NCBI GenBank assembly: GCA_001825665.1
Contig: MHXZ01000066.1
Location: 1-64,000 of the forward strand
Length of the DNA stretch: 64,000 bases
Direction of reading: 5' to 3'
Source of the DNA: Planctomycetes bacterium GWF2_41_51
GTDB taxonomy: Bacteria > Planctomycetota > Phycisphaerae > Sedimentisphaerales > UBA12454
Part shown: positions 8,476 to 52,300 of the stretch, piece after piece
How positions within the stretch are numbered: position 1 is the first letter of the stretch
Layout: every line of letters starts with the position of its first letter
Notes under the pieces: generated by a model
Database searches by the model: none
The model's input: the letters and a program-made list of their open reading frames with translations, nothing else
What the model was told of the DNA's origin: nothing
Translations under genes and position numbers: made by a program

Positions 8476-8547
8476 TGTAAACCGTAATGGAAACTGGACT
8501 CGTTTAGCTTAAATCATTTCTTTTATAATTTGCGTTTCAATAATACA

Positions 8548-9720
8548 ATGCTTGGTGGCAGAATAAAACAATTTCGATGTGCTCGCGGCTTATCTCAAGA
8601 TATGCTTGTGGATAAAATTGGAGGTATAGTTTCGAAACAATCAATCTCTAAATATGAGAGAGAAGTTACTTTACCTTCTCCGCGAATTTTGAATAAAATT
8701 GCTAAAGCTTTAGATGTTAAAGCGGCGTCCTTATGGAAAGAGCCGTCTTTTAATGTAGAGTTTATTGCATACAGAAAAGGTTCAGGGCTCAACACTATAG
8801 AACAAGAAAAAATTGAAGCACAAGTTCAAGAAACTCTTGAAAAATGCATGAAAATTAGTGAGTTGAGAAATTGCAATGCCAAAGTTGATATACCTGTTAA
8901 TGCTTTTCCCATTACACAAATTGAAGATGCCGAAGAAGCAGCAGAATATTTGAGGGAATCTTGGTCTTTAGGGGTAGATCCGATAGCAAATGTAACGGCG
9001 ATGTTAGAAGGCAAGAATGTATTTGTTCTTGAAATTGATGCCCCTGATAGCTTTGATGGTATTTCAGCTTTTGCTAAAGATGTAAATGGAAAGAAAGTGG
9101 TTGCAGCGGCTGTTGTTAGTGCAAATGATAGATCAGGAGAAAGGCAACGACTTAATCTTGTTCATGAATTGGGTCATTTGGTTTTAAAAATGCCTGAAGA
9201 AGCAGATAGTAAATTTGAAGAAAATGCAGCTTTTAGGTTTGGTTCAGCATTATTAGCTCCTAAAGAAGCAATATATAATGAAGTAGGCCGTAAAAGAACC
9301 TCTTTGTCTATAGAGGAATTAATTTTGTTAAAAGAGAGATTTGGATTAAGTTTGCAAGCTTTGGTTATGAGATTAAATGTGCTTGATATTGTCTCTGATT
9401 CTTACAAGAAAGATTTTTTCTTCTTTATCAATAAACAAGGTTGGAAACGAACAGAGCCAAAAGAATTAGAGCCTGAAAAAGCAACTTGGATAAAAAAGAA
9501 TGTCTTAATGGCTTTATCTGAAAGTTTAATTTCACATCGACAAGCAGAGCAATTATTAGGCAAAAAAATTGATGTAGGAGAAGATGTGCCAGGGAAAAGA
9601 CGTGGTTTTATGATGTTATCGCTTTCTGAGAGGAATAAAATTCTCTCTACTCAAGCCAAAAAAGCTGATTATGAATTAGATCAAGACTGGCTTGATATGG
9701 GTGAGGATTATGAGTCTTGA
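8548..9720 (+). CDS. XRE-family HTH protein with ImmA/IrrE metallopeptidase domain
   Basis: 390 residues from ATG 8548 (a TTG at 8530 is possible, and neither has a clear SD). An N-terminal XRE helix-turn-helix spans roughly residues 3-60 (GGRIKQFRCARGLSQ, SKQSISKYEREV). An IrrE/ImmA zinc-peptidase domain at about 120-290 carries the HExxH motif in NLVHELGHLVLK and a following Glu in FEENAAFRFGSALLAP. The C-terminal ~100 residues are less conserved. Such proteins repress mobile elements and are relieved by, or perform, proteolysis. Some act as antitoxins. The MazF-like gene overlaps its end, so it probably regulates or neutralises that toxin. Confidence 0.85.
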   Translation: MLGGRIKQFRCARGLSQDMLVDKIGGIVSKQSISKYEREVTLPSPRILNKIAKALDVKAASLWKEPSFNVEFIAYRKGSGLNTIEQEKIEAQVQETLEKCMKISELRNCNAKVDIPVNAFPITQIEDAEEAAEYLRESWSLGVDPIANVTAMLEGKNVFVLEIDAPDSFDGISAFAKDVNGKKVVAAAVVSANDRSGERQRLNLVHELGHLVLKMPEEADSKFEENAAFRFGSALLAPKEAIYNEVGRKRTSLSIEELILLKERFGLSLQALVMRLNVLDIVSDSYKKDFFFFINKQGWKRTEPKELEPEKATWIKKNVLMALSESLISHRQAEQLLGKKIDVGEDVPGKRRGFMMLSLSERNKILSTQAKKADYELDQDWLDMGEDYES

Positions 9721-10090
9721 AAGTTCATGTCAAAAACCTCAAGAATCGATGAAAGGTGATATTTGGTGGATTGATTTAGATCCCACAGAAGGTTCAGAGA
9801 TAAAAAAAATACGTCCATGTGTTATCATTAGTTCTGACTCTATTAATTTTGTAAAAGAAGTCAGATTAGTGGTTCCCTTAACCGAATCAAATAGAACAAA
9901 AGAGGAATTAATTTGGTGTGTTACAGTTGAACCTACCGCTCAAAATGGTTTAACGAAAAAAACTGTAGCAGATGCTCTCCAAACTCGATGTGTTTCAATT
10001 AAAAGATTTCAAAATAAAATAGGAGTAATCTCTGCGGAGCTTATTGAAGAAATAGTAGCAGCGGTTGCTGCTGTTATTGAATATGAATAG
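9710..10090 (+). CDS. MazF/PemK-type endoribonuclease toxin
   Basis: 126 residues from ATG 9710 (SD GGTGAGG 6-7 bases upstream). It overlaps the XRE-ImmA gene by 11 bases, so the two are co-translated. The family signature is clear: GDIWWIDLDPTEGSEIKKIRP at the start, CVIISSD, VVPLTES, and DALQTRCVSIKRF near the end. MazF toxins cleave mRNA at short sequences. The usual small MazE antitoxin is absent, and the only partner gene is the XRE-ImmA protein. Confidence 0.85.
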   Translation: MSLESSCQKPQESMKGDIWWIDLDPTEGSEIKKIRPCVIISSDSINFVKEVRLVVPLTESNRTKEELIWCVTVEPTAQNGLTKKTVADALQTRCVSIKRFQNKIGVISAELIEEIVAAVAAVIEYE

Positions 10091-10190: not shown

Positions 10191-10922
10191 TTATAATTTC
10201 AACAAACAATCAAGATTTTGAGCTAATATTTCAGACAATTTTATCTCACCAATGTTTTTCAGCATAGCAAGTTTAGATATGGTTTTATTTAAATCTATAG
10301 GCCTGAAAGTCCTTTCCTCAATTCTTATGAGCGGCCCATCGCTTTCAAGTAGTAACCTATCAATTGGAATTTTTTCAATAATTTTTCTCCCATTTTTAGA
10401 AAATAACATAGGATAATTAATTGAAAAAAAACACCCTTTATTTATTGCTAAATCAATATTTTTTAATGAGCCTGAATACCAATGAAGTACTATTTTACCG
10501 TTGAAACTATTGGGCAAAATAGAAATTACTTCTTCTTCAGAGGCTCTTGAGTGAACGGTTAAAACCTTGTTTCCTATTTTATCACACAGTTCAATTAATT
10601 TTTTAAAAAAAGAAATTTGAATTTCGTAATCCTTAGATGTGGTATTTATAAAATCTAAACCTACTTCACCTATAAATCTTGATTCATTTATATATTTCCA
10701 CATTACATCAACATATTTATTATATTGAGTAATTAATTCTGGGTGGAAACCGAGAGCTATTTTGATGTTTTCTGAATTAATTTGTTTTTTTAATTTTTCA
10801 TATAGAATAGGTAAGTTAGTGACTGCAATTGTAAAAATATGATTATTGTCAATCTCTTTTACAATTTCTTGGATTTGTTTATTATACAAATCCAAATGAA
10901 GATGAGTATCATGAAGCAACAT
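10191..10922 (-). CDS. qatD: QatD, TatD-family metal-dependent nuclease
   Basis: 243 residues. TatD metal ligands are visible: HDTHLHLD at the N-terminus, GEVGLDF near residue 90, TVHSR, LHWYSG and LLESDGP. TatD enzymes are Mg-dependent DNases. Its ATG overlaps the stop of the upstream QueC-like gene in TAATG, and it is the last gene of the four-gene Qat operon. This position and gene order match the anti-phage QatABCD system. It is a little shorter than housekeeping TatD proteins. Confidence 0.85.
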   Translation of the reverse strand: MLLHDTHLHLDLYNKQIQEIVKEIDNNHIFTIAVTNLPILYEKLKKQINSENIKIALGFHPELITQYNKYVDVMWKYINESRFIGEVGLDFINTTSKDYEIQISFFKKLIELCDKIGNKVLTVHSRASEEEVISILPNSFNGKIVLHWYSGSLKNIDLAINKGCFFSINYPMLFSKNGRKIIEKIPIDRLLLESDGPLIRIEERTFRPIDLNKTISKLAMLKNIGEIKLSEILAQNLDCLLKL

Positions 10923-12235
10923 TATAATATATCCAAAAAAGAATTTAGCTCTTTCATTCCTCTCTCGTAAACCTTAATATATTTTTGATGATTGTCATCG
11001 ATAGGACCTGCAGCTTGTATTTGTAGAAAAGTATGTACATTTCTTTTTTTAAAGTTTACCATACCAATTTTATATACTTTAAGATTATTAACTGCTGTTT
11101 CATTTTTTGAGAAATTTGAATCCCTATAAAATGTGTCATCTTTTAAATTTGCTTCCAGGATTGCAGCTCTTCTAATGACACAAGGTAGACAGTTTCCACA
11201 GTGACTTGGTTTGGAATCCCCATCCCATCTACCGTTATCAGAATGAGAACAGGACATTGTATTTTTGATGTTATTCTTTAAGAAATTAAAATCTTTACAT
11301 TCAGCAATCATTTCTCCTTTAGTTTTAAATTGATATGGATTTTGAAAACGCACTTTTATATTAAGTGTATTCAATAAATTTTGTAACTGTTTCATGTAAT
11401 ATGGATGAGTAGTTCTCGTGCTACTACTTCCTAATCTGGAAGCTGTCAATGGAATATTAAGTGATATTAAGCCATTTTCTGGGATATATAGATTAATTTC
11501 TTTTTTTAATGCAGAGGAGATAATTATGGCCTGAGCAAAAAACATGAAAGACCTTGTCCTGGTTGTAAGTTCTTTTCCCCGTAATGGAGCAGCATTGAAA
11601 CTAAAAAATTGGTCATTTGTTAAATTATATCTACTTATGAGCAGTGTTTTCACTTTTTCTTGAAACTGATAAACTCCCTTACCTCCTCCACTATGCCCTA
11701 CAAATAATGTATCAGGTAGCGCTTGTAACATATCTATAGCACCGATGAAAGAATCCAATCCTCCAGAGAGCATACAAATACTATTAGGCATTTTTTCAAT
11801 GAACAATTTATCTGTTTTACCGTTTTCATGAATCTTATCCTTTTTAATTGTTTCAATGTGGTTTAGTACTCGTTTTCTAAAATAAACTGTCCATTTATCA
11901 CCACTTAAAAATGATAGCATTCTTTCAAGGGCATTTTTTTGATCCTTCCATTGATCAATTGAGAGGACAGGTAAATATAATTTAAAATTTCTTGTCCATG
12001 CATCTGGGAACCATTCTCTTGGAATCACTCTATCGGCATAATAAACAAAAAGAGAAATGTAAAATAAATCAATGGCTTCATCTGAAAAGAAATACGGTAA
12101 TTTAAGTATTTGTTTGTCTTCCCAGAATGTATAATGAAATTTATTCTTTTTGCTCAAGTTCACAGAAATAAATTTTTCCGCAATTGAATAATTGTCATCT
12201 TGGTTTAGTCTGCATATTATATTGATGGTATCCAT
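10922..12235 (-). CDS. qatC: QatC, QueC-like ATP-dependent enzyme
   Basis: 437 residues from ATG 12235 (GTG 12238 also possible). The start overlaps the QatB stop in a TGATG. A PP-loop nucleotide-binding motif SGGLDSF lies near residue 157. A QueC-like zinc site near residues 350-370 has CSHSD followed by HCGNCLPC. The N-terminal ~150 residues are extra compared with QueC. QueC makes preQ0 from CDG. In Qat systems the homologue is thought to perform a related modification needed for defence, with the substrate unresolved as far as known here. Confidence 0.88.
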   Translation of the reverse strand: MDTINIICRLNQDDNYSIAEKFISVNLSKKNKFHYTFWEDKQILKLPYFFSDEAIDLFYISLFVYYADRVIPREWFPDAWTRNFKLYLPVLSIDQWKDQKNALERMLSFLSGDKWTVYFRKRVLNHIETIKKDKIHENGKTDKLFIEKMPNSICMLSGGLDSFIGAIDMLQALPDTLFVGHSGGGKGVYQFQEKVKTLLISRYNLTNDQFFSFNAAPLRGKELTTRTRSFMFFAQAIIISSALKKEINLYIPENGLISLNIPLTASRLGSSSTRTTHPYYMKQLQNLLNTLNIKVRFQNPYQFKTKGEMIAECKDFNFLKNNIKNTMSCSHSDNGRWDGDSKPSHCGNCLPCVIRRAAILEANLKDDTFYRDSNFSKNETAVNNLKVYKIGMVNFKKRNVHTFLQIQAAGPIDDNHQKYIKVYERGMKELNSFLDIL

Positions 12236-13074
12236 CACAATGCTCCTTCTATAACATCATAGCAACTTTGATATATTAAGTCGATTTGCTTCATGATTGT
12301 CTTTGAGTTAAAATTAACATTTTCAATTCCAATTTTATTTATTGTATTGGCAACAACACCATCAATGTATTCCTTAATTATTTGTTCTTTTTCCAATACA
12401 TTTTCAGGTGACTTTGCATTTTTCTCAAAGCGAGTTTCTACATCTTTTGTAAATTTCTGAAAAATATATGAGCTTATATATACTTTAATAATATTACTAA
12501 ATGTCTGTGTATTCAAATTATTGAGGATTTCAATATTTCCCCCATTTTGCGATATCTCATTATAAAGGATTTCCATCGCATCAAGAAAAGCACTTCGAGC
12601 TACAGCATCTTCTTTTGTATCAGGAGTTGGAGCGAGAATATTTACCAAATCACCAAGAACTTCATCAACGCTTCTGTTTTGATAAGAAATGCCATAATTA
12701 TCTAAAGTGCTTTTAATGCCATTTGTTGACAAGCTTGATAAAAAGCTACCCAATTTTGCTGTCGTAGTCTTGCCAATTTTGGCAGAAGTTGATGCTTTTC
12801 CTGCACCTCCGTAAGCTTTGATGTGGGCAGATAATGGCTTTTTATAATCACTTGTATTCCCAGATGCATACTTGGATGTTAGTGTCTTTGTATCACTCCA
12901 ATATTTAGGAGTCAAATCATTAGGGGTAGCGGGGTCTTCTTGATCATCTGGAGTTACAGGAGAAGGGTCTTGATCGGCACCTGGATTATCAACAGGTTCA
13001 TTTTTATCATAAAAATCATCTGGCAATAACGGACTTTTACCTTTAGGGCCGCCGTAGCTACTTGATGTTCCCAT
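12235..13074 (-). CDS. qatB: QatB
   Basis: 279 residues from ATG 13074, chosen because QatB proteins begin MGTSSSYGGP and AAGGA lies upstream. The upstream Met at 13092 is less likely. The N-terminal ~100 residues are disordered (Gly, Pro, Asp-rich: SPVTPDDQEDPATPND), and the rest is helical. No enzymatic motif. The gene overlaps the end of qatA by 17 bases and the start of qatC. QatB is the least understood component, possibly the substrate or scaffold of the system. Confidence 0.85.
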   Translation of the reverse strand: MGTSSSYGGPKGKSPLLPDDFYDKNEPVDNPGADQDPSPVTPDDQEDPATPNDLTPKYWSDTKTLTSKYASGNTSDYKKPLSAHIKAYGGAGKASTSAKIGKTTTAKLGSFLSSLSTNGIKSTLDNYGISYQNRSVDEVLGDLVNILAPTPDTKEDAVARSAFLDAMEILYNEISQNGGNIEILNNLNTQTFSNIIKVYISSYIFQKFTKDVETRFEKNAKSPENVLEKEQIIKEYIDGVVANTINKIGIENVNFNSKTIMKQIDLIYQSCYDVIEGAL

Positions 13075-14887
13075 TTCCAAAATCCTTTTCAATGGCTTGT
13101 TTTAAACTCGGATTCTCTTTCTTCCAACGGTTTACGATTTCTGTAATTTCTGCTTTTTTATTAGTATGGTCCATAAAATCTTTCATTCGTGGAATCACAC
13201 CAATATTAAGTTTTTCTCCTGTGAGTTCATTTAGACAATTAATTGTTCCCACATAAAGAGAAACTCTGCTTGCTCCCCATGCAAGAAGAGATTTGAAAAT
13301 ATTCCCATCAATATTTGCTGATGAAGTTAATCTCTCTGCAATTTTTATTAAGATTGTATTGGCCTCTGATTCATTGGCTTCATTGATTTCATTCATAGCA
13401 GCATTTCTGGCAATCTCAGAACCATTAAGTAAATTGCTCAATATTTTTTCTGCGGTTAGACTTAATTTAAGTTGAGCCAAATTAAGCTGATTTGTTAAAC
13501 TTTCTCTTGTGAAATAGAAATATGGTCTTAAATCAGTTTGACCGATTTTGGGTTCTATTTTTACCCAGTCTTTAATCCAATTATCATCCTTCCATAAGTT
13601 TAATTCTTTTGTTTCTTCCCATTTGCCATTTTCGATATTTTGAAGTTCTTTAATTTCACCTTTTGAAGCTGGTTTTATTTCCGCAATTTTTCTGAAAAAG
13701 TCCATCTTAAAATATTCAAGAAGCATTACTTTTGCTAAAATCTTACGATCAAGTTTAATCTTTCTATACTTTGCCATTTTTTCTCTCATTGATAAAGAAT
13801 TTAAAAATCTTTTGCAATGTCGAGGATTACCATTAAGACCAGAAGCAAGGACAGATGATAACTGTTTTGCAATTGAGATAGCCTCTCTTAACTTTGGGAC
13901 AAAGGTGGGAAATTCTTTTGCAAGTTTATTATATGTTAACTCAAAATTTATAAAATCATTTTTTTTCTCATTCTTAATAAAACTCAACACTTGCTCAAAA
14001 TCTTTTTGTTCTAACTCCTTTTGAAAGAGAAGGCACATTATATAAAATTCAATTTCTTTTTGGCTCATCTGTGGAATTCTAATAGGATATTGTATTAATT
14101 TTTCAAGGTATTCCTTTCCGATATCCAACTGATTTCCTTCTATTTCCAAAAATTTTTGTTTAACTGCATATTTTACATGTCTTTCATCTGCACCTATAAC
14201 AAATGATGTGTTTTTACTAAATAAGAATAATCTAATTGCTTCAAGAGTATCTAAAATCGTATTGGGGTTGCATCTATCAAGTTCATCAATGAATACTATT
14301 AATTTTGTTATTTTTGACTCACTTAGAAGCTTGGAAAAATCATCATGGAAAGTTCTAACACTATTGCGAATTTCTTCGTTATTGAATTCCCCCGATAAAG
14401 CATTTTTTACGTCATCTTCTTTGATATTACAAACTTTATCTTTAACAGTAGATAAAACGCTATCAAGGGTAATATTCGCTATTGTTCCAATGCCACCAGT
14501 AGCTAAAAAATCAACCCCATATCTTATTGCTTTACTTGCTAATTTTAACTTATCTGTATTCTTGTATAGGCGTTTTATTGTTTCTACTGCTTTTTGCTCC
14601 AATTTTCTTTCTTTTTTTATGCTATCTAAAATTGTTCCTAAAAGAGCAGTCTTTGCATCTTCATAACCTTCGAATAACCAACCATTGAAAAATACACATA
14701 GAACATTTTCTTTTTGAGATAGTTCTTCCATGCACATTTTCATTAAACTCGATTTGCCACTCCCCCAATCTCCATATATTCCAATACTTGAGGGAGATAA
14801 AGTATCTTCAATGGCAATACTCTTAAATGTTTCTTTTAAGTACTCGAAATCTAAAAAATCCTCAATTGTTTCACTATCCTTCCACAT
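13058..14887 (-). CDS. qatA: QatA, KAP-family P-loop NTPase
   Basis: 609 residues. Walker A GDWGSGKS is at residues 39-46, and Walker B LIVFIDELDRC is near 197-207. The long helical middle and C-terminal parts are typical of KAP NTPases. SD AAGGATG precedes ATG 14887. It is the first gene of the qatA-B-C-D operon, all junctions of which overlap. In characterised systems the four proteins together restrict phage. The first three genes are AT-rich compared with the chromosome to the right. Confidence 0.88.
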   Translation of the reverse strand: MWKDSETIEDFLDFEYLKETFKSIAIEDTLSPSSIGIYGDWGSGKSSLMKMCMEELSQKENVLCVFFNGWLFEGYEDAKTALLGTILDSIKKERKLEQKAVETIKRLYKNTDKLKLASKAIRYGVDFLATGGIGTIANITLDSVLSTVKDKVCNIKEDDVKNALSGEFNNEEIRNSVRTFHDDFSKLLSESKITKLIVFIDELDRCNPNTILDTLEAIRLFLFSKNTSFVIGADERHVKYAVKQKFLEIEGNQLDIGKEYLEKLIQYPIRIPQMSQKEIEFYIMCLLFQKELEQKDFEQVLSFIKNEKKNDFINFELTYNKLAKEFPTFVPKLREAISIAKQLSSVLASGLNGNPRHCKRFLNSLSMREKMAKYRKIKLDRKILAKVMLLEYFKMDFFRKIAEIKPASKGEIKELQNIENGKWEETKELNLWKDDNWIKDWVKIEPKIGQTDLRPYFYFTRESLTNQLNLAQLKLSLTAEKILSNLLNGSEIARNAAMNEINEANESEANTILIKIAERLTSSANIDGNIFKSLLAWGASRVSLYVGTINCLNELTGEKLNIGVIPRMKDFMDHTNKKAEITEIVNRWKKENPSLKQAIEKDFGNGNIK

Positions 14888-14987: not shown

Positions 14988-16172
14988 TTAAATAAGCTGC
15001 TCATTTATGGTATTTCTATTTATAATTTCTTGTCTTATTGGGTCATACATATAATCAATGATTTCTCCACTAATAATAAATTGGATCGCATCCTCAATTA
15101 CTGAAAGTGGAGCTATAAACCATTCTCTCGGAATATGACGACTCCCATTTTTGTCAAATACATCAATATTTAGACATGAATTGCCAAAAAAGTTATGAAG
15201 TAGTTGTTCTAATTTCTGGGGGTTCATATTATAGCATTGAAAAACAGCTACTACAGAGACAGGTGCCATAAGAAATGTAGGATCTGATTCAGCATCTCTA
15301 ATTCTTTCTTCTACTGATATCTTTGAATATCCTATTTTATATAAATGGCGTATTGTTAAAAGTTTGTCATCTTTGCTTTTTGACTTCAGAGCATAAATAA
15401 ATCCAACTTCCTTATCATCTTGAGATATTCCCTTAATATCATTGAGAAGTTTGTCTTCATGCTCAGTTACCCGTCTTCCATTTTTGTAGAGTTCGGCAGC
15501 TAAAGATCTAAGAAGCATGTCAGATTCAGTTCCATTTTCAAAAATACAACGTAAGCGAGCATTTACTTTTCCATTTTCATCAGGCTTTTTTTCTCCGACT
15601 TCTGCAACATAAAGCAACACACCTTTTAGTACAAAGAAGTAACCTTTCTCAATTTGTTGTTCATTTTTAAATGGATGAAGTCTTCGTTTGCCTTCGGTTA
15701 AATCTGTCTGGCATTGTTTTAAAAGATGCTCAAAACTTTGGAAATCTTTACAAGGTTTTCTACTTGCCACATAATCGGGCATTGTGGTTTCTTTAGGAAC
15801 ATGCTTTAGGTCAAAAATATCCTCTACGTTTGAATCAAGAATCCCTAAAGTATCGTCTTTTAAAATGTCATCCAAGGAATTGATTTCTTTCTTTTCAACT
15901 TTAAGCAAGCCGTATTTATCTTCTGCCTCAAGTGCAATCGATTTGCTTTCATCTTCACGAAGGCCTTTGAGGCGGCAATAAAGCATATATTCCAGTATTT
16001 CACCTCCTAGTTCAGGCTCACGATTATGCGTTTTGTAGAACTCATTTATTTCTTGAAATGAAGCAACAAGTCTCTCATCTTCATTCTTTGCAGGCGTTGA
16101 CGCAGGTTTGATATTCAGCAAACCCAAAGGATCATTTTCAAATATTTCTTTTAGCTTCTTTTGCTTATCCAT
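14988..16172 (-). CDS. GIY-YIG superfamily nuclease (T5orf172/MUG113-like)
   Basis: 394 residues. The C-terminal half carries the T5orf172-type GIY-YIG pattern: GFIYALKSKS, LYKIGYSKISVEERI, a long helix and QKLEQLLHNFFG, then HIPREWF near the end. The N-terminal ~200 residues are variable and include two similar acidic segments (DPLGLLNIKPAS, DTLGILDSNVED). The start overlaps the helicase stop by 8 bases. GIY-YIG enzymes cut DNA. Here it is the only intact nuclease-type domain of the methyltransferase-helicase-nuclease operon and is therefore the likely cutter. Confidence 0.8.
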   Translation of the reverse strand: MDKQKKLKEIFENDPLGLLNIKPASTPAKNEDERLVASFQEINEFYKTHNREPELGGEILEYMLYCRLKGLREDESKSIALEAEDKYGLLKVEKKEINSLDDILKDDTLGILDSNVEDIFDLKHVPKETTMPDYVASRKPCKDFQSFEHLLKQCQTDLTEGKRRLHPFKNEQQIEKGYFFVLKGVLLYVAEVGEKKPDENGKVNARLRCIFENGTESDMLLRSLAAELYKNGRRVTEHEDKLLNDIKGISQDDKEVGFIYALKSKSKDDKLLTIRHLYKIGYSKISVEERIRDAESDPTFLMAPVSVVAVFQCYNMNPQKLEQLLHNFFGNSCLNIDVFDKNGSRHIPREWFIAPLSVIEDAIQFIISGEIIDYMYDPIRQEIINRNTINEQLI

Positions 16173-18090
16173 TTGCTTGTACTTTTCTTTTCTGCTCTTT
16201 CAAAAAGATCGTAGCTTCTGCCAAGCGTTTTTCAAGTGGGTCATGAGAATAAAAGTTCGGTTCCTTCTTGAATCTTCGATAAAACTCATTGATTTTAGGC
16301 CAAAGAATATATGCTTCCTCTAAAGTCATCTGAATGCGTGTTGCCTCAATGGCTTCTTGGATAACTTTAAGAACTGGAACTGTGACGGACTTCGATATGA
16401 TCTCAAAAGCCTTCTGAAAAGGATTAATTCTATCAATCAAATCAATATGTAAGTCATCAATATTTATAAATTGACCTGCCATGCGAATGAATCGCTTGTC
16501 TCCTGTCTCTTTGATTTCGCCATTTTTTATCACAGAATCAACAACTACATACTGTCGTACTTCTTCCACTTCATCTTCAGAAAGTTCTGGATACTTAACT
16601 TTAATGATTTTTGGAATTAGTACTTTATTAATTACTTCGGGGTCAACATTACCAGGCATTGCCTTTAGCATATCATCGTTTTGAAGAATCGTTGCTTTCA
16701 GGTCATTTAAGTCAGACTCGATTATATCTTTTACCCGTTTGGAACTTGGTTCTTTTAAGCCTCTGATTTTTATCTCGCCCGGCTTAGCTTCATCATCATC
16801 CGACAACTTGGTTTTGAACTTAAAGCTCGGAGCTAAAACTTGCTCCATAAGCAAGGATGCGGTGATCGCTTTAAGCATATTATTAACAGCAAGCTTTACC
16901 TCATCATCAGCTGCATCTGGTTGTGCGATAAGATTTGTGAATTGTGCGTGAGTCTTGTTGCTACTATCACGTGTAGCACGACCAATGATTTGAATAATTT
17001 CTGTTAATGAACCTCTATAGCCCACAGTTAAAGCATGTTCACAATAAGGCCAGTCAAACCCTTCCTTTGCCATTCCTAAAGCAATAATTAAATCCATATC
17101 TTCTAACGATTTCATTGTTCGCAAATAATTAATTATGCGATCTCTATCTCTTGGTTCATCTTCTACCAGGTCTGCTATTTTCAACAGCTTTCCATCTGAA
17201 TAACGCCTGACATGAATAACTCCTGTTTCTGGATCTTGGTTTTCGACACTACCAATAGCATCAATAATAAAATCCACTTCATTGTGCTTATCTTTTGTCG
17301 ATTCACCTGAGTTAACATTAGGAATGTGTAGAATAGTTTTTTTATCAGTATCTAATATTTCAGAAATAGCAGAAGTATAACGACCTTGATAAAAATGATA
17401 ACCAATGCCTAATGATTTCAGATAAGTGTAACCATTCAGTTGTTCGTAATAGTTATAAGTTACCTTCGTAAACTTAATTTCATCTTCAGGCAGTAGGATT
17501 GAAACGTTATCACCTCTAAAATATGAGCCTGTCATCGCCACAATATGCACATTTGACTTTTTCATTAAAGAACGAAGCAAGTATCCTAATATGCTTTCTG
17601 TATCTGCCGAGACATGGTGAAATTCGTCAATAGCCAAAAGTATATTATCGAACTTTTCTTCTTCCAACTCTTCAAAGGCAAAACGCAAAGTAGCATGGGT
17701 GCAAATGAGAATTTTTTCATCATTATCCATGAAGTTTTTAAATGCTTGTACTTTGCCATTATCGCTGCCTGGAGTGCAAAGGCTATAAACTGGATTGGGG
17801 TCCCAGTCAGCAAAAAATCCTGAAGAAATTAATTTTGTTGGACTGAATGAGCGGCCAATGGATCTTTCAGGAACAGCAACAATCACTTTTTTTAAGCCCT
17901 GATTTATTAATTTGTCTAAGGCAATATACATTAAAGCACGGGACTTACCAGAAGCAGGTGGTGCTTTCAACAATAAATATTGAGCGTCTCTTAGTTCATA
18001 GGAACGCTCCTGCATTTCTCGCATGCCAAGCTCATTGACCTTTGTACTTTGACCGCTTTGGGCATAAGTAACTTTGACTATATCTGGCAT
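16165..18090 (-). CDS. superfamily 2 DEAD/DEAH-type helicase/translocase
   Basis: 641 residues from ATG 18090, one base after the methyltransferase stop (TAATATG). A frame starting at 18153 would overlap the upstream gene and lacks support. Motif I is APPASGKSRAL, motif II LLAIDEFHHVS, and motif VI QIIGRATRDS. There is no nuclease or methylase motif. The C-terminal ~230 residues are helical and unrecognised. In the operon it probably moves along DNA as the R-subunit motor does in type I/III enzymes and delivers the GIY-YIG nuclease. Confidence 0.82.
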   Translation of the reverse strand: MPDIVKVTYAQSGQSTKVNELGMREMQERSYELRDAQYLLLKAPPASGKSRALMYIALDKLINQGLKKVIVAVPERSIGRSFSPTKLISSGFFADWDPNPVYSLCTPGSDNGKVQAFKNFMDNDEKILICTHATLRFAFEELEEEKFDNILLAIDEFHHVSADTESILGYLLRSLMKKSNVHIVAMTGSYFRGDNVSILLPEDEIKFTKVTYNYYEQLNGYTYLKSLGIGYHFYQGRYTSAISEILDTDKKTILHIPNVNSGESTKDKHNEVDFIIDAIGSVENQDPETGVIHVRRYSDGKLLKIADLVEDEPRDRDRIINYLRTMKSLEDMDLIIALGMAKEGFDWPYCEHALTVGYRGSLTEIIQIIGRATRDSSNKTHAQFTNLIAQPDAADDEVKLAVNNMLKAITASLLMEQVLAPSFKFKTKLSDDDEAKPGEIKIRGLKEPSSKRVKDIIESDLNDLKATILQNDDMLKAMPGNVDPEVINKVLIPKIIKVKYPELSEDEVEEVRQYVVVDSVIKNGEIKETGDKRFIRMAGQFINIDDLHIDLIDRINPFQKAFEIISKSVTVPVLKVIQEAIEATRIQMTLEEAYILWPKINEFYRRFKKEPNFYSHDPLEKRLAEATIFLKEQKRKVQANG

Positions 18091-18091
18091 A

Positions 18092-20779
18092 TTATTTTCT
18101 CTTTCTTCGAGTTTTATTTTGCTCGGCAAACAAAGTATCTTTGGTTTTCTCATTTGTTATCATTTGCCCATAGAGCTTGAATAAATACTCCAAACGTTCT
18201 TCATCACTTTCAAAAGGTTTGCTACGATAACAGCGTTCAACTACTAAGTCCAGTTGACGATGTGCCTCCATCAAACCTTCTGGCATTTTGTTCTGGTCAT
18301 AGAGTTGAGCTAAGGTTTTTTCGGGGTGCTTTTCACGTTCTTGAAGTACCAAAAAAACATGCATTGAAATTGACTCTTTTTGGGTTTTTGAAAGTTGCAG
18401 CAATGGAAAAGTATTGTAACCTAACGCAGAGGAATATCTGATACGTGATTCTAAACTTCCACAGACAGCACGTATCCATGTCATGTGTATTTCGGAGGAG
18501 ATTATTCCAAATACCCAAGGTTCAGCATTGTATATGGCTTGGGCTGCATCAGATATTACGTAATCGCCATCAAGGAAACCAAATGGTATGTACTTTCTTC
18601 TTTCCGAAGAAACTCTTGGTACCATGATCGAATACGAGAGATTAAATCTGACTTCACCAAATCTATGAGGATATTGGGCTGCCAACTGAGTCGCCTTTTT
18701 TTTACTTTTTAATCGAAACTCTCGAATTTTATTTATTCTCAAAGCTATTTCGGGAACACCCAAAGCAATTTCTTTTTCAGAATCCTCTATCCACAAACAC
18801 CACCTTTTACGGCCCTTGATTAATTCAGACGCTCCTATTAACTTCTTTGTATATTTCTCTGCTTCAGGGAATGTTTGTATTAAATTCTTTCTTTCAGAAT
18901 CACTTAGTATCAAATGGCCGCCATCTACTAATCCACTTCCTCTAAGTATAACTGGGAGATCACTCAAAGGCCTATTTCTTTTAGTAATGATGAAAGTCTT
19001 ACCAGGTGTTAAATACGGATTAATATTTTCTACACATAATTCAAACCCCTTACTAAAAATCTTTATGGGGGCATTTCTGATATTTCTAATACCAACAATT
19101 ACGCAAGTCACCCCAGCGTTCTCTTTAGCATTATTTGTCCACTTAAAGGGTTGATGTGCAAAACTAATTTGCAAGTTTTTATTAATAATTAAAGGCCATA
19201 GTGAAGCTACTTGTTCACCCTGACATATGGAATTAGTTGTTACAAATGCAAATTGGGCATTTTGATTGATAATATAATTTGCACCCTTTATGAACCAGCA
19301 GGCTATATAATCTAAATTTTTATATTTATTATATCCTTTGAAAGCAATAGCCATGTCTTTTTTCTGCTCTTTAGATTGAAGACTATATCCCAAATAAGGC
19401 GGATTCCCTAAAATGTAAATTTCATCTCCTTCGTTTATGGGGCAAACTTCTTCCCATGACAATATGGCAGCATTTCCACGGGTAATGTGCCCAGCATCTT
19501 TTAATGGCAGTGTAGGATTGGTTTTTCCAAATTCTTTGAAGAACTCCACATTCATTTGATGTTCTGCCAACCAAAGTGAAAGAATAGTTATTTCATGGGC
19601 AAAATCGTCCAACTCTATTCCATAAAAACTACCCAAGCTAATATTGGAAAGGGCAAGACTGTTCATAGCCTTAAAGATTTTCATTTCCAGTCTGCGTAGT
19701 TCTTTATACGCAATGATCAAAAAGTTGCCAGAGCCACAGGCTGGATCGAATATTTTAATTTTTCTAAGCCTATCGAGAAGTTGGTCCAATTTTTTTGTAT
19801 TTCCCTTTGCTTTTTCGAACTCTTGATATAATTCATCAAGGAAAAGTGGCCCAATCACTTTCATAATGTTTGGTACAGAGGTATAGTGCATACCTAAACC
19901 ACCTCTATGTTCAGGGGTTATTACTGCCTGAATCATCGAGCCAAAGATATCTGGATTAATTGCAGACCAGTCTAATTCTCCGCTGTCAATAATCACTTTT
20001 CTGGATCGTTTGGTAAAAATTGGAGATTGATACTTATCTCTGAATAACCCACCATTTACATAAGGAAATGTATCTAAATAGGCAGGTATATTTTTACGTT
20101 TGTTTTTTTCTGTGTTTAATACTTCAAAAAGTTTATCTAAGTAGATATTAAGGTCGCTACCATCTTCTTGGGTATGTGAACTAATGGCGTTAATAAATTG
20201 ATTTTTCAGGAAGATATTTGTGTCATCTGAAAAGAAACAAAATAGTAGGCGAGATAGAAAGACATTTAAGCTATGGATGAACTCAGATGATTCATTAGGG
20301 TTGTCTTTTTTGATTTCATCGAACAGTTTAGCCATTCTTTCTGCTGCTTTAACATCAGCAGGGTTTTCAATTTGATGTTGTGCTTTCTCCATACCCGCCC
20401 ATGGCAGGAAAAAGTCGTAGTATTTTGACAGATCATTTATTTCAATGTCAATTGTATCTTGTGTTTTTATATCAACTGCTAATAATGTTTCATAGTTCGT
20501 TACAACAACAAACCTGGGGGAATGTCTCAGTAAATTTGAATCATTTCTTAAATTGTCAATCGTTTCATGCAAATCCGCATCTTGGACTACCCTAAAGAGC
20601 AGTTTCTTTTTCCAAATAATTTCGTCATTTTTCTTTGATAAGTTTAAATTCCCATTTTTCAGCCTTGCAATTGAAGCTTTGGGCAATCCATAAGAAAGCA
20701 ATAAATCATAGATAAACGTTTCCTTAGAAAAGGATTGTTTTAGTTTTTGCAGGTTACTCTCTATTTGAGCTATATTCAT
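18092..20779 (-). CDS. MmeI-like N6-adenine DNA methyltransferase with degenerate nuclease domain
   Basis: 895 residues with the full MmeI architecture. An N-terminal ~145-residue domain leads into a helical spacer (VKAAERMAKLFDEI, FLSRLLFCFFSDDTNIF). The methyltransferase has FDPACGSGNF near residue 340 and the catalytic NPPYLGY near 457, and a target-recognition part has TNSICQGEQV, KNINPYL-type and SRIRYSSALGYNTFP stretches. In MmeI the N-terminal domain is a PD-(D/E)xK nuclease with LLIEMK. Here the aligned stretch reads LLFRVV (residues 60-65), so the catalytic Glu and Lys are missing. It is the first gene of a tightly coupled operon with helicase and GIY-YIG genes. It probably provides self-protection and sequence recognition. 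SD TAGGAA precedes ATG 20779. Confidence 0.85.
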   Translation of the reverse strand: MNIAQIESNLQKLKQSFSKETFIYDLLLSYGLPKASIARLKNGNLNLSKKNDEIIWKKKLLFRVVQDADLHETIDNLRNDSNLLRHSPRFVVVTNYETLLAVDIKTQDTIDIEINDLSKYYDFFLPWAGMEKAQHQIENPADVKAAERMAKLFDEIKKDNPNESSEFIHSLNVFLSRLLFCFFSDDTNIFLKNQFINAISSHTQEDGSDLNIYLDKLFEVLNTEKNKRKNIPAYLDTFPYVNGGLFRDKYQSPIFTKRSRKVIIDSGELDWSAINPDIFGSMIQAVITPEHRGGLGMHYTSVPNIMKVIGPLFLDELYQEFEKAKGNTKKLDQLLDRLRKIKIFDPACGSGNFLIIAYKELRRLEMKIFKAMNSLALSNISLGSFYGIELDDFAHEITILSLWLAEHQMNVEFFKEFGKTNPTLPLKDAGHITRGNAAILSWEEVCPINEGDEIYILGNPPYLGYSLQSKEQKKDMAIAFKGYNKYKNLDYIACWFIKGANYIINQNAQFAFVTTNSICQGEQVASLWPLIINKNLQISFAHQPFKWTNNAKENAGVTCVIVGIRNIRNAPIKIFSKGFELCVENINPYLTPGKTFIITKRNRPLSDLPVILRGSGLVDGGHLILSDSERKNLIQTFPEAEKYTKKLIGASELIKGRKRWCLWIEDSEKEIALGVPEIALRINKIREFRLKSKKKATQLAAQYPHRFGEVRFNLSYSIMVPRVSSERRKYIPFGFLDGDYVISDAAQAIYNAEPWVFGIISSEIHMTWIRAVCGSLESRIRYSSALGYNTFPLLQLSKTQKESISMHVFLVLQEREKHPEKTLAQLYDQNKMPEGLMEAHRQLDLVVERCYRSKPFESDEERLEYLFKLYGQMITNEKTKDTLFAEQNKTRRKRK

Positions 20780-20955: not shown

Positions 20956-21258
20956 TTATTCTTTTATAAGAGTTTGGATACTCATTCCCTCACATCCCAC
21001 ACTAACCAGCGGAAAATCCTCAAATTCGCCCTGTCTAAATGTAAAAATCCTTTTAAACCTGCTCAAAATACCATCAGGATTCCCAAAGATTTTCCTGCTC
21101 ATCTTTGCAAACTCTTTAGGCCTCATTTTCCCTATATACCTGCACAAATGAGCCCAGTCAGCCGGGGCAATTCCTTCATCTAATTCAACCCATACAGCAG
21201 TTTCTGAGCATGAGGGTTCAGAGAATAAAACACCTTGAGATTTAGTTTGAGTAATCAT
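20956..21258 (-). CDS. hypothetical protein upstream of the methyltransferase operon
   Basis: 100 residues with SD AAGGAG 8 bases before ATG 21258. The N-terminus is Ser/Cys-containing and the middle basic (RPKEFAKMSRKIF, SRFKRIFTFRQGEF). Not recognised, and no enzyme motif is seen. It lies 177 bases upstream of the methyltransferase start on the same strand, so it could belong to the defence operon or be unrelated cargo. Confidence 0.5.
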   Translation of the reverse strand: MITQTKSQGVLFSEPSCSETAVWVELDEGIAPADWAHLCRYIGKMRPKEFAKMSRKIFGNPDGILSRFKRIFTFRQGEFEDFPLVSVGCEGMSIQTLIKE

Positions 21259-21340
21259 TTTTGCCGCTCCTTAATAAAAAATATAGTTCTTATTTAAGAG
21301 GGCTTAGGAGGCAGATAGTATAAAACCAGAGCTGGGTTCC

Positions 21341-21640
21341 ATCTATAAAGAGCTCAAAGTCAAATAAAAAAACCTCCTTTTGCACTAAATATTTGTCTTG
21401 AGAGCAATTCTTATCGGTCGCCCGATTCATCTTTTGGCAGATTCATCTTACTAAAGTCAATTTTACTTTTTTGCCCTCATAAATAAAGGGGCGAAAAAGT
21501 AAAATTGCGGTTTTTTCTTTGTCGCATTATGGGTCAATAATTTTGTCAGCAATATTGTTGCCACACATCTATCGGGAACTAACCTTCATAGGCTGTTCAT
21601 ACAGACCATTGAGACATATCTAAATACCAATCGGTCATAC
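21341..21640 (+). repeat. 300 bp perfect tandem duplication, copy 1
   Basis: Begins ATCTATAAAGAGC and ends TCGGTCATAC. Bases 21341-21640 and 21641-21940 appear identical throughout. Each copy contains a long hairpin CAATTTTACTTTTT / AAAAAGTAAAATTG with flanking T-runs. No gene is visible. Confidence 0.95.
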
Positions 21641-21940
21641 ATCTATAAAGAGCTCAAAGTCAAATAAAAAAACCTCCTTTTGCACTAAATATTTGTCTTG
21701 AGAGCAATTCTTATCGGTCGCCCGATTCATCTTTTGGCAGATTCATCTTACTAAAGTCAATTTTACTTTTTTGCCCTCATAAATAAAGGGGCGAAAAAGT
21801 AAAATTGCGGTTTTTTCTTTGTCGCATTATGGGTCAATAATTTTGTCAGCAATATTGTTGCCACACATCTATCGGGAACTAACCTTCATAGGCTGTTCAT
21901 ACAGACCATTGAGACATATCTAAATACCAATCGGTCATAC
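21641..21940 (+). repeat. 300 bp perfect tandem duplication, copy 2
   Basis: Directly abuts copy 1 without a spacer. It lies downstream (minus sense) of the IS110 transposase. Confidence 0.95.
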
Positions 21941-22029: not shown

Positions 22030-23067
22030 TTAACATAATTTTGAATCAAATCTGCTATTTGATTTCCACATGCCCCACATTATCGTAAGCATTTTTCTTG
22101 CTACTGCATGTCGGGCATTACTTTTTGTCATTCCATTTTTAATGAAGCTTTCATAATCTTTCCTGAAAATATTATCACCACTTGACATTATAGCACTGGT
22201 TGCAGCTCCGATTACCACATTTTTAAGCCGCTTATTTGCATACCAAGTTAGCTGTAATCTGGCGGGCTTATCTCTGCCTTTATTATCCTTTCCACTTGTT
22301 TCTCTGATAAGTCCGACTCCACAATATTTCCATAACTTACTTTTGCTTTTGAATCTCCAAGGTATATCCAAATAAGCAAACAATGTAATAGAGCGTACAG
22401 TTCCAACTCCCGGCAGTTCACTCCAATATTTTAGTATGTCATATTTTCTCGCAAGTATCTGCATTCTGCGTTTAGCTTCATCTTTCTGTTGGGTTGCCAC
22501 ATCAAGTCCCATCCAAAAAACAGAAAGCCTTCCTGAAAGTTCTTTATTTTCCAAAGAGCTAAGCCAAATTTGTCTCGGTTCAAGATTACGTATTACTTTT
22601 GAAGGTATTTTAATACCATATAATCTGGCCTGTGCACGAATTCTATTTATATATCTTGTTGCTTCTACAACTCTGTCATGATAAAGACCGACCCATCGTT
22701 TTAATTCAACTTTTTCTTCATCGTCACTATGATAAACATTTCGTAAAAACTTACCACGCAGCAAAGCTGCCAATTTTGACGAATCAATCCTGTCGTCCTT
22801 ATCACCATCAAACGCTATAAGCTTATTGCGTCTTGGGTCACAAACAATTATTTCATGTACTTTGTCTTTTAGGTTTCGATAAAGCCATCCAGCCATCGGC
22901 CCTTCTTCAAATGTTAATAATTTCTTTCCAGAAATATTATTTAGTACCTCACTGATGGCTTTAATGGTTGTTGGCACAGAAAACCTTTGGACTATATTGC
23001 CATTGTTTTCTACTGCCAGTTCAGTATTGGTACAGTGAACATCTGCTCCGATAAAATATGTTTTCAT
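22030..23067 (-). mobile_element. IS110-family transposase
   Basis: 345 residues with SD AAGGAA 8 bases before ATG 23067. The N-terminal RuvC-like DEDD domain is visible: FIGADVH, LLTFEEGPMAGW, and KDDRIDSSKLAALLRG. The C-terminal Transposase_20 domain has the helix-hairpin-helix LPGVGTVRSITL and the KYCGVGLIRETSGKD stretch that contains the catalytic serine. Length is normal and no lesion is seen. IS110 elements use a non-coding bridge RNA from one end. The 5' leader here is only ~110 bases, and the 3' side holds the duplicated 300 bp, so the element ends are not resolved by eye. Confidence 0.9.
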
Positions 23068-49175: not shown

Positions 49176-49397
49176 CCCCTTGCTCATTTGGGGTAAGGTG
49201 GAGGAAACACCCCCTGCCGTTTGTTGGTGAAGGAATCACCGAAGTGTACGGCTACGGAGTACTTACAACGGATTGTCTCATTCGACTAAAGCCTGAATAC
49301 AGAAAGAATCTGCGCTTAAACTTTAACTATTTTATAGAGAAAAATGGACATGAAAATTAACGAAACCTTCGTAAATTTGTCAGGATGGAACAAAGTT

Positions 49398-52300
49398 ATG
49401 AATAATAAAATTATTCTCAGTCTCGCATTAACCCTTCTATTAACCACAATCGGCTCAGCAGCAACGTGGAATGTTCCGGAAAACGGAAACATTCAAACGG
49501 TAATCGACAACGCCTCCAGTGGCGACACGATTCTGCTTGCCGACGGGACATATACAGGTGCCGGCAAAAAAGACCTCGACTTCGGCGGCGGCAAGAACCT
49601 GCAAATCGAAAGCGCAAGCGGCAACCCGAGAAACTGCATTATCGATCTTCAGGGAAGCGGACGCGCATTTTATCTCCGCAACGGCCAGGAAGCATCCACA
49701 ATTCGCGGCATTACCATCAAAAATGGTGATATAAGTGATGAAGCTTCCGATGGAACATCACTTAAAGGCGGACCCTACGGCGGAGCAATCGAATGCTTGG
49801 GAACATCGCCCACAATTGAAAATTGTATATTTGAGGATTGTGAGGCAGAATACGGCGGTGCTATAGATATATTTTATGGTTCACCCATTATTAAAAATTG
49901 CATTTTTACAGGTAACAAATCGGCTTACGAGGGTTCGGCAATTGAAATCGCAGGCGAATCAGAAACTAAAATTCAAAATTGTCTTTTCTACAATAATACC
50001 GCAGCAAGCGGCTATGGCACAGTTGACTGTTATGAAGGTGCTTCTCCTGAAATTACAAACTGTACAATTGCGGATAACAGCGGAGCGGAAAATTATGGAG
50101 GCGTTTATTCCAGCGGTTCAAATGTAATCATAACAAATACAATTTTATGGAATAACGGCGTCAGTCTGGGCGGAATGCTTATTGAAGCATCTTACAGTTG
50201 TGTGGAGAATGGATACAGCGGAGCAGGCAATATCAGCACAGACCCGCTGTTCAGAACAGGTCCATACGGCCCATACGGAAATTATTATTTGAGCCAGATA
50301 TCGGCAGGTCAATTAGTCACCAGCGATTGCATTAACAGCGGCGGATCTGATGAAATCGGATTAAGTACACTCACTACCAACACATATAATAATCTTTTAG
50401 ATGAGAGCACAGTTGATATCGGATACCATTATCCTGCATCTGCTACAACAGGACAATTCGATCTTACAACGGTTGTTGAAGGCGGAGGTATTGTAACTAA
50501 TTATCCGACAGGACAGACTCACAAACAATATGGTGAAGTAAGACTAAGCGCGATCGCTTATGAAGGTTTCAGGTTCATGGAATGGGTTATCGGAAGTACA
50601 ACTATTCCCGGGCCGAATAATATTTATGTTGTTACAATGGACGCGAACACAACTGTAACTGCAAGATTCAGTACAGTGCAAACATATAAGTTAATCACAC
50701 TCGTTAAGGGCGGAAACGGAAACATAACAGGTGTAACTCCGAATTATTACCCGGATCCCAGTGATCCATTCGCATATTACATACCAATGAATACGAATGC
50801 GATTATTACGGCTGCTCCGAATATCGGATATGAAATCAAACAGTGGCTCAGCGGCCCAACAGAAACATTCAATATCAATGATCCCGCTACATACGATGTC
50901 AATGCGCCAACGGGCAATACATTTACAAAAACTATCGATGCAAATACAACCGTCGCTGTTGAATTCAAATATCAGCAGTATATGCTGACCACCAGCGTTG
51001 TTAATGGCAACGGAACAGTAACACCAAAACGCGGATATTATCCGGCAGGTGCGACTGTTAACCTTGTGGCAACACCTGCTGACGGATATAGAGTTAAAGA
51101 CTGGACAGTTGACGGCATTTTAATGAACAAATGGAATACTCCGACACATAGTGTTGTAATGACTGCCAACAAAAACGTCCAGGTTGAATTCGAGCTAAGT
51201 ACAAACAGAGTTATTCATGTGCCTGGTACATATCCATACGTAACCATTCAGGACGCAATAAATAATTCCCAAAACGGCGATACAATTAAAATTGCGCCGG
51301 GAACATATCCGGGTACTGGTTTTTCTGTAAATAAAAGCATCACAATCGTAGGTGAACCCCAAAATCCGGAGACCGTAGTTATAGACGGTAACAATTTCGA
51401 TAATCGAATTTTCAATCTTGGTAATGCTGGTGTAGTAACTCTTAACGGCCTTACCATCGCAAATGCGAAATATTATGGCCGAACACCACTTCAAACTGAA
51501 AGCCCCTGGGATCCGAATACTAATTTCCGTAATGATGGTGCAAACGGCAACAGGAGACAGGGTGCGGGTATATTTGTGGATGGAAACCACAAAATCATTA
51601 ATTGTATCATTCGAAATTGTATTGTAACAGGCGGCGATGCAAGAGATGGTTTTGACGGCAATCCATTCGATATATCCAAGCACGATCTTCCAATACATAA
51701 AGGAGGATTTGGCGGCCGCGGCGGTAACGCAGAAGGTGCCGGCATTTACATCTTCTCAGGTAACCCAACAATCAAAAATACGATAGTTGACGGCTGTCGT
51801 GCACTTGGCGGTAACGGCGGCGATGGCGGTAATGGTCTTGACGCAAGCACGAACGATCCATTTGATCCCAATTTCCCGGGCGGCCCAGGCGGAAATGGCG
51901 GGAACGGCGGAGATGCTCTTGGAGCAGGTATATATTGCAGACAAGGCTCAAATCCAACATTTATTTCTTGTACCGTGGAAAACTGCGAAGTTTTTTCAGG
52001 TTACGGCGGTGATGGCGGACTCGGCGGCGTTGGTGCAAGAAGCGATCAGAACGCATTTGATCCCTGCAATCCAGCAATTTTTATTCAAACAGGATATGGC
52101 CAGGGCGGCCACGCCGGTATGCCTGGATTGGCTTATGGCGGTGGTATATATATTGACGATCTGTGTACAGCAAAGTTCGAAAGCTGTAAAATTATTGAAA
52201 ACAGCGCATTGGGCAACGTAGGCGGCAGCGGTGGTAATTCATCCGGTGATCTCATTCATTCATTCTATCAGGGACAAGGCGGCGTCGGTGCCTTAGTCGA

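What the first reader, a model, noticed from the sequence alone, without database searches (positions are those of the whole stretch)
14988..20779. Restriction-like operon: MmeI-type methyltransferase with a dead nuclease domain, helicase and GIY-YIG nuclease
MmeI-type enzymes normally carry methylation and cutting in one protein. Here the methyltransferase, spacer and target-recognition parts are intact, but the aligned nuclease core reads LLFRVV where MmeI has LLIEMK, so the catalytic Glu and Lys are gone. Two more genes follow with 1-base and overlapping junctions: an SF2 motor and a GIY-YIG protein. This suggests a type IIL-like enzyme whose cutting has been handed to a separate motor-plus-nuclease pair. 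That may be a distinct class of modification-dependent or long-range restriction system.
Basis: partly seen in the sequence, partly recalled or inferred. Interest (0 to 1): 0.8.

Follow-up and report, generated by a model that had tools for sequence, protein, structure and literature searches.

The report
Known three-gene MmeI-type restriction operon
This is an intact copy of an already described, widespread three-gene DNA-restriction-like system (DnmA-YeeB-YeeC, also called the OspHL35III type), in which an MmeI-type DNA methylase that has lost its own cutting site travels with a separate DNA motor and a separate nuclease; the arrangement is real but not new.

Summary
Window 14988-20779 (- strand) encodes an 895-aa MmeI-type methyltransferase, an SF2 helicase and a GIY-YIG protein, tightly packed. 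MmeI's catalytic D70/E80/K82 are E53/R63/V65 here. The loss marks a whole family: 67 of 69 helicase-linked homologues have Lys/Arg for Glu80 and none keeps Lys82, while 7 of 7 stand-alone MmeI relatives from the same phylum keep D-E-K. All 68 loci with enough flanking sequence carry the three genes.

The interpretation 'may be a distinct class' is largely right but published. Blow et al. 2016 describe exactly this trio (OspHL35III, 'several hundred members in REBASE'). Nye 2020 and Fernbach 2023 study it as B. subtilis DnmA-YeeB-YeeC and cite Morgan 2009 for the missing motif.

Most likely function: Type I/III-like restriction, with the methylase as recognition subunit, YeeB as motor and YeeC as cutter; cleavage is unproven. 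The B. subtilis copy is inactive against tested phages; a Vibrio copy reportedly protects. The window copy keeps its other active-site motifs and sits beside a complete Qat anti-phage operon.

Modest additions: a two-helix module shared by YeeB and YeeC, a cargo slot after the methylase, a predicted target CNGRAC.

The parts
18092..20779 (-). DnmA/YeeA-like methyltransferase (895 aa): MmeI_N domain with lost PD-ExK site (E53/R63/V65), helical spacer, m6A MTase (motif I FDPACGSGNFL, motif IV GNPPY), TRD, C domain
16165..18090 (-). YeeB-like SF2 helicase/translocase (641 aa from the ATG at 18090): Walker A APPASGKS, motif II DEFH, motif III MTGS, motif VI QIIGRATR; C-terminal two-helix module about aa 594-633
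14988..16172 (-). YeeC-like GIY-YIG protein (394 aa; T5orf172/MUG113) with GFIY, YKIG, R290, E322, H326, E350/W351 conserved; N-terminal two-helix module about aa 36-76
10191..14887 (-). neighbouring complete QatABCD anti-phage operon (QatA 13058-14887, QatB 12235-13092, QatC 10922-12238, QatD 10191-10922); separate system, same strand, gap of about 100 bp
20956..21258 (-). small ORF (100 aa) upstream of the operon, no family; not shown to belong

Best explanation
A complete member of the known DnmA-YeeB-YeeC (OspHL35III-type) system: a Type I/III-like restriction-modification system built on an MmeI-type methylase. The methylase recognises an asymmetric 6-bp site through its TRD (predicted CNGRAC, possibly CGGRAC) and methylates the A at position 5 on one strand. 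On unmethylated incoming DNA it recruits YeeB, which translocates using ATP, and YeeC, whose GIY-YIG domain cuts. The former nuclease domain is kept as a structural or docking domain. Shown here: gene content, motif states, linkage and family-wide loss of the PD-ExK site. Shown by others for relatives: m6A methylation by DnmA, and reported phage protection by a Vibrio copy. Inferred: translocation, cleavage by YeeC, assembly and the recognition motif.
For: 68/68 testable loci carry all three genes, and the helicase-to-GIY-YIG pairing is kept in 85/85, across Bacteroidota, Proteobacteria, Campylobacterota, Firmicutes, Actinobacteria, spirochaetes, Saccharibacteria and others. Helicase motifs and GIY-YIG catalytic positions are >=95% conserved. 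Distances co-vary across 61 loci: r 0.92 MT-HE, 0.90 HE-GI, 0.89 MT-GI. PD-ExK is lost where the partner genes are present, and 7/7 stand-alone relatives keep it in genomes without YeeB. Window YeeB and YeeC align to a Vibrio relative (L088) with gaps of only a few residues. Defence-island setting next to QatABCD with GC 0.32-0.37 against about 0.43. Literature: PMC4752239, PMC7261158, PMC9973331. TRD residues R722/D744, A745/R781, E777/R779 and K694 read with the MmeI code of PMC4833311.
Against: No cleavage has been shown for any member that I could find. B. subtilis DnmA-YeeB-YeeC affected neither transformation nor three phages, and phages do not avoid GACGAG (PMC7261158, PMC9973331). The Vibrio protection result is known to me only as cited in PMC9973331. 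The YeeB model is only moderate (pLDDT 75.8, pTM 0.54). YeeC has no significant PDB fold match (best E 6.8e-3). The distance correlations carry no phylogenetic control.
Confidence: 0.72

Rival explanations
1. Defence without DNA cutting (BREX-like): the methylase marks self, and the helicase and GIY-YIG protein block phage replication or act in another way, YeeC being a DNA-binding rather than a cutting protein.
For: No cleavage has been reported; PMC9973331 calls T5orf172 largely uncharacterised; BREX systems use a specific methylase without evident cutting (PMC4752239); phages do not avoid the DnmA site (PMC9973331).
Against: YeeC keeps G257/Y260, K279/G281, R290, E322 and H326 as invariant columns; no BREX core genes lie beside the operon.
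Confidence: 0.12
2. Relic: DnmA acts as an orphan regulatory methylase and YeeB/YeeC are passengers, as concluded for B. subtilis.
For: B. subtilis data (PMC7261158, PMC9973331).
Against: All three window genes are full length with intact motifs, and YeeB is the most conserved of the three across loci (mean distance 0.32 against 0.49 and 0.55), which is not expected of passengers. The strict linkage argues that the partners are selected.
Confidence: 0.11
3. Modification-dependent (Type IV-like) restriction.
For: Nothing specific; GIY-YIG and SF2 proteins occur in many defence settings (general knowledge).
Against: A methylase with an intact TRD and catalytic motifs in the same operon would mark the host for attack; no modified-base reader domain was found by Pfam in any of the three proteins.
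Confidence: 0.05

Closest known systems
OspHL35III-type system (Blow et al. 2016, PMC4752239, S4C)
   Same: Same three proteins: MmeI-like methylase/TRD lacking the endonuclease motif, separate translocase, separate GIY-YIG endonuclease
   Different: No difference found; the OspHL35III sequence itself was not compared because it is not held here
B. subtilis DnmA(YeeA)-YeeB-YeeC (PMC7261158, PMC9973331)
   Same: Same gene order, domains and missing REase motif; low-GC island
   Different: B. subtilis YeeB/YeeC are reported to lack short C-terminal stretches and show no restriction; the window copies are full length. Predicted target ends in C (E-R pair), DnmA's GACGAG ends in G
MmeI, Type IIL (5HR4)
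   Same: Homologous over nearly the whole length, five shared Pfam domains
   Different: MmeI cuts by itself with D70/E80/K82; here these are E/R/V, and motor and nuclease are separate genes
Type I R-M (HsdRMS)
   Same: Methylase, specificity, SF2 motor and nuclease working together; RhuM genes occur inside both kinds of operon
   Different: One TRD fused to the methylase instead of a separate HsdS; the nuclease is a separate GIY-YIG protein instead of a PD-(D/E)xK domain fused to the motor

Membership tests
DnmA-YeeB-YeeC / OspHL35III type | MmeI-like MTase + TRD in one polypeptide | tested here: met
DnmA-YeeB-YeeC / OspHL35III type | N-terminal endonuclease motif absent | tested here: met
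   E53/R63/V65 for D70/E80/K82
DnmA-YeeB-YeeC / OspHL35III type | separate SF2 translocase gene downstream, YeeB family | tested here: met
   (up to 82% identity to linked homologues)
DnmA-YeeB-YeeC / OspHL35III type | separate GIY-YIG/T5orf172 gene, YeeC family | tested here: met
DnmA-YeeB-YeeC / OspHL35III type | direct sequence match to the B. subtilis or OspHL35III proteins | not tested
   their sequences were not held; PF20473 rings in the B. subtilis control genome
DnmA-YeeB-YeeC / OspHL35III type | m6A methylation on one strand of an asymmetric site | not testable with these tools
   motif predicted only
Type IIL/IIG single-chain R-M (MmeI) | endonuclease site in the same polypeptide | tested here: not met
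   PADLOC nevertheless labels the gene REase_MTase_IIG (1016 bits)
Type I R-M | HsdR with fused PD-(D/E)xK nuclease and separate HsdS | tested here: not met
   no such domains in the three genes
BREX / DISARM | core genes (PglZ, BrxC/L; DrmA/B/C) | tested here: not met
   only weak shared-MTase hits to PglX/DrmMI, NCBIfam ones far below cut-off; no core genes among the neighbours searched
QatABCD (neighbour) | QatA, QatB, QatC, QatD in order | tested here: met
   PADLOC/NCBIfam/Pfam hits to all four; NCBIfam QatA is below its curated cut-off (482 of 600 bits)

The most novel reading that the evidence does not exclude
The dead nuclease domain is not decaying but has been converted: the catalytic Glu is replaced by Lys/Arg in 67 of 69 family members, and the domain is nearly as conserved as other parts of the protein. 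Together with a two-helix module shared by the C terminus of YeeB and the N terminus of YeeC, this would describe a specific assembly in which the former nuclease domain loads the motor and the paired modules hold motor and nuclease together.
Probability: 0.3. Interest if true: 0.4.

Novelty: new member of a known kind. Interest (0 to 1): 0.17.

Why it matters
How it restricts DNA is still unproven years after the gene set was first noted. A full-length copy with a predicted target gives a concrete candidate for testing, but so do hundreds of others.

Tried and rejected
Search for the system in close relatives: only the window genome among 59 relatives, and one further clear case (G280, 71%) among 294 genomes of the phylum; the operon was therefore studied through other phyla. 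YeeC fold search gave no significant match. YeeB matched SF2 helicases in general (Hel308/Hjm, DbpA, MrfA, HsdR) without a specific relative. Idea that the inserted AlbA_2 gene is typical Type I R-M cargo: 0 of 3 plasmid homologues inspected lay in Type I operons, so only the RhuM parallel is kept (2 of 3). Idea that Qat is a usual partner: no Qat gene in the other loci. Alternative nuclease site in the N domain: a conserved D103-x-K105 exists, but its Asp is also invariant in MmeI and in stand-alone enzymes whose working site lies elsewhere, and whose third position is Ile, Glu or Asp; judged non-catalytic, not excluded. Morgan 2009, Makarova 2011 and Piel 2021 are cited only through other papers because they are not held.

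Full report
OBSERVATION. The sequence shows one base between the first two genes and an 8-nt overlap between the second and third. The methyltransferase matches all five MmeI Pfam domains and solved MmeI over nearly its full length (5hr4, E 5.7e-191). In that alignment 53-EIIWKKKLLFRVV faces 70-DLFWPGILLIEMK, so the MmeI catalytic residues D70, E80 and K82 (each required for cleavage according to PMC4833311) are E53, R63 and V65. The methylase motifs FDPACGSGNFL and GNPPY are intact and essentially invariant in the family. The helicase keeps APPASGKS, DEFH, MTGS and QIIGRATR; the GIY-YIG protein keeps GFIY, YKIG, R290, E322, H326 and E350-W351.

FAMILY-WIDE TEST. Of 88 loci, 70 had at least 3 kb upstream and all 70 had the methylase; 85 had at least 1.3 kb downstream and all 85 had the GIY-YIG gene; 68 could be tested on both sides and all 68 had all three. 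Loci were recruited by the helicase and are the best-scoring ones, so this measures linkage within the family, not its limits. In one locus (L054) the methylase lies after the GIY-YIG gene.

Among 69 helicase-linked methylases with an alignable N terminus, window included, the position of E80 is Lys in 55, Arg in 12, Gln in 1 and Thr in 1; the position of K82 is never Lys; D70 is Glu in 59 and Asp in 4. Seven of seven stand-alone MmeI relatives from the window's phylum keep D-E-K, and none of their genomes has a YeeB match. The linked methylases separate from the stand-alone ones on the tree (split support 0.88, branch 1.02), consistent with one loss. The N domain is still conserved (mean majority identity 0.61; spacer 0.68, MTase 0.67, TRD 0.54), so it is not simply decaying.

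WHAT IT IS. The trio is a published system. PMC4752239 (Blow et al. [quoted passage not shown] PMC7261158 (Nye et al. 2020) and PMC9973331 (Fernbach et al. 2023) study the B. subtilis copy as DnmA-YeeB-YeeC; they report that Morgan et al. 2009 had noted the missing motif and the yeeB/yeeC-like neighbours, that a Type I-like system had been suggested, and that Makarova et al. 2011 placed YeeB and YeeC homologues in defence islands. The B. subtilis copy methylates GACGAG but did not affect transformation or three phages; deletions in a Vibrio crassostreae copy are reported to raise sensitivity to some phages.

MECHANISM. Most likely a Type I/III-like restriction system in which recognition, motor and cutting are on three proteins. 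For: the strict linkage, the conservation of all active sites except the redundant PD-ExK, YeeB being the slowest-evolving member (mean distance 0.32 against 0.49 and 0.55), correlated divergence (r 0.89-0.92 over 61 loci, no phylogenetic control), the low-GC setting and the adjacent QatABCD operon. Against: no cleavage demonstrated anywhere I could find, and negative B. subtilis data. PMC9973331 suggests that B. subtilis YeeB/YeeC lack short C-terminal stretches; the window copies align to a Vibrio relative (L088) with gaps of only a few residues, so that explanation for inactivity does not seem to apply here. Using the MmeI recognition code (PMC4833311), the window TRD has K694 at MmeI 723 (C at position 1), R613/G616 at 642/645 (G suggested at position 2, weak), R722/D744 at 751/773 (G at 3), A745/R781 at 774/810 (R at 4), and E777/R779 at 806/808 (C at 6): predicted CNGRAC, perhaps CGGRAC, methylated at the A. 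This is a prediction only.

TWO SMALL ADDITIONS. First, about 40 residues near the end of YeeB (594-633) and residues 36-76 of YeeC are homologous to each other (hhalign probability 94.7, E 5.6e-8). Among 100 window comparisons the only others with high scores were windows overlapping the same two regions (74-95); the best unrelated one scored 17. Both are predicted as two helices. A docking role is my inference. Second, 32 of 73 loci have extra sequence or genes between the methylase and the helicase, and almost none between the helicase and the GIY-YIG gene (five gaps over 200 nt, in four of which the GIY-YIG ORF itself is split). The cargo includes AlbA_2/HATPase genes (14 loci), RhuM (13 loci, some outside the slot), Fic genes, and single defence candidates such as PDC-S06 and an OLD-like ATPase. 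RhuM also sits inside Type I R-M operons in 2 of 3 plasmids inspected; AlbA_2 did not in any of 3.

ANNOTATION NOTE. PADLOC 2.0 scores the window methylase as a Type IIG restriction enzyme (1016 bits) although its own nuclease site is lost, and shows no specific model for YeeB or YeeC.

VERDICT. Observation confirmed; interpretation partly right but already known; a new member of a known kind; low interest.

Noticed in passing
window 10191-14887 (-): Complete QatABCD anti-phage operon directly downstream of the trio in the same direction, about 100 bp gap; no Qat genes near the other loci, so it is a neighbour in a defence island, not a usual partner.
   Followed up: yes
window 21340-21939: Perfect 300-bp tandem duplication (100% identical) with an internal 50-nt near-palindrome, between the operon and an IS110-type transposase (22030-23067, -); found nowhere else in this genome. 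Could be an end of the IS110 element (bridge-RNA region?) or an assembly artefact.
   Followed up: partly
L019-L098, between methylase and helicase: A cargo slot occupied in 32 of 73 loci, with AlbA_2/HATPase, RhuM, Fic, PDC-S06 or OLD-like genes among the contents.
   Followed up: partly
window 16165-18090 (C terminus of the protein) and 14988-16172 (N terminus of the protein): Homologous two-helix module of about 40 aa shared by the motor and the nuclease protein.
   Followed up: partly
window 8530-10090 (+): HTH plus IrrE/M78 peptidase protein followed by a short ORF at 9692-10090 that looks MazF-like by eye, divergent from the defence operons; the second was not searched.
   Followed up: no
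window 49344-63887 (+): Single ORF of 4847 aa with repeated beta-helix-like segments, a subtilase-like stretch and dockerin-like and fibronectin-like C-terminal repeats; judged by eye only.
   Followed up: no
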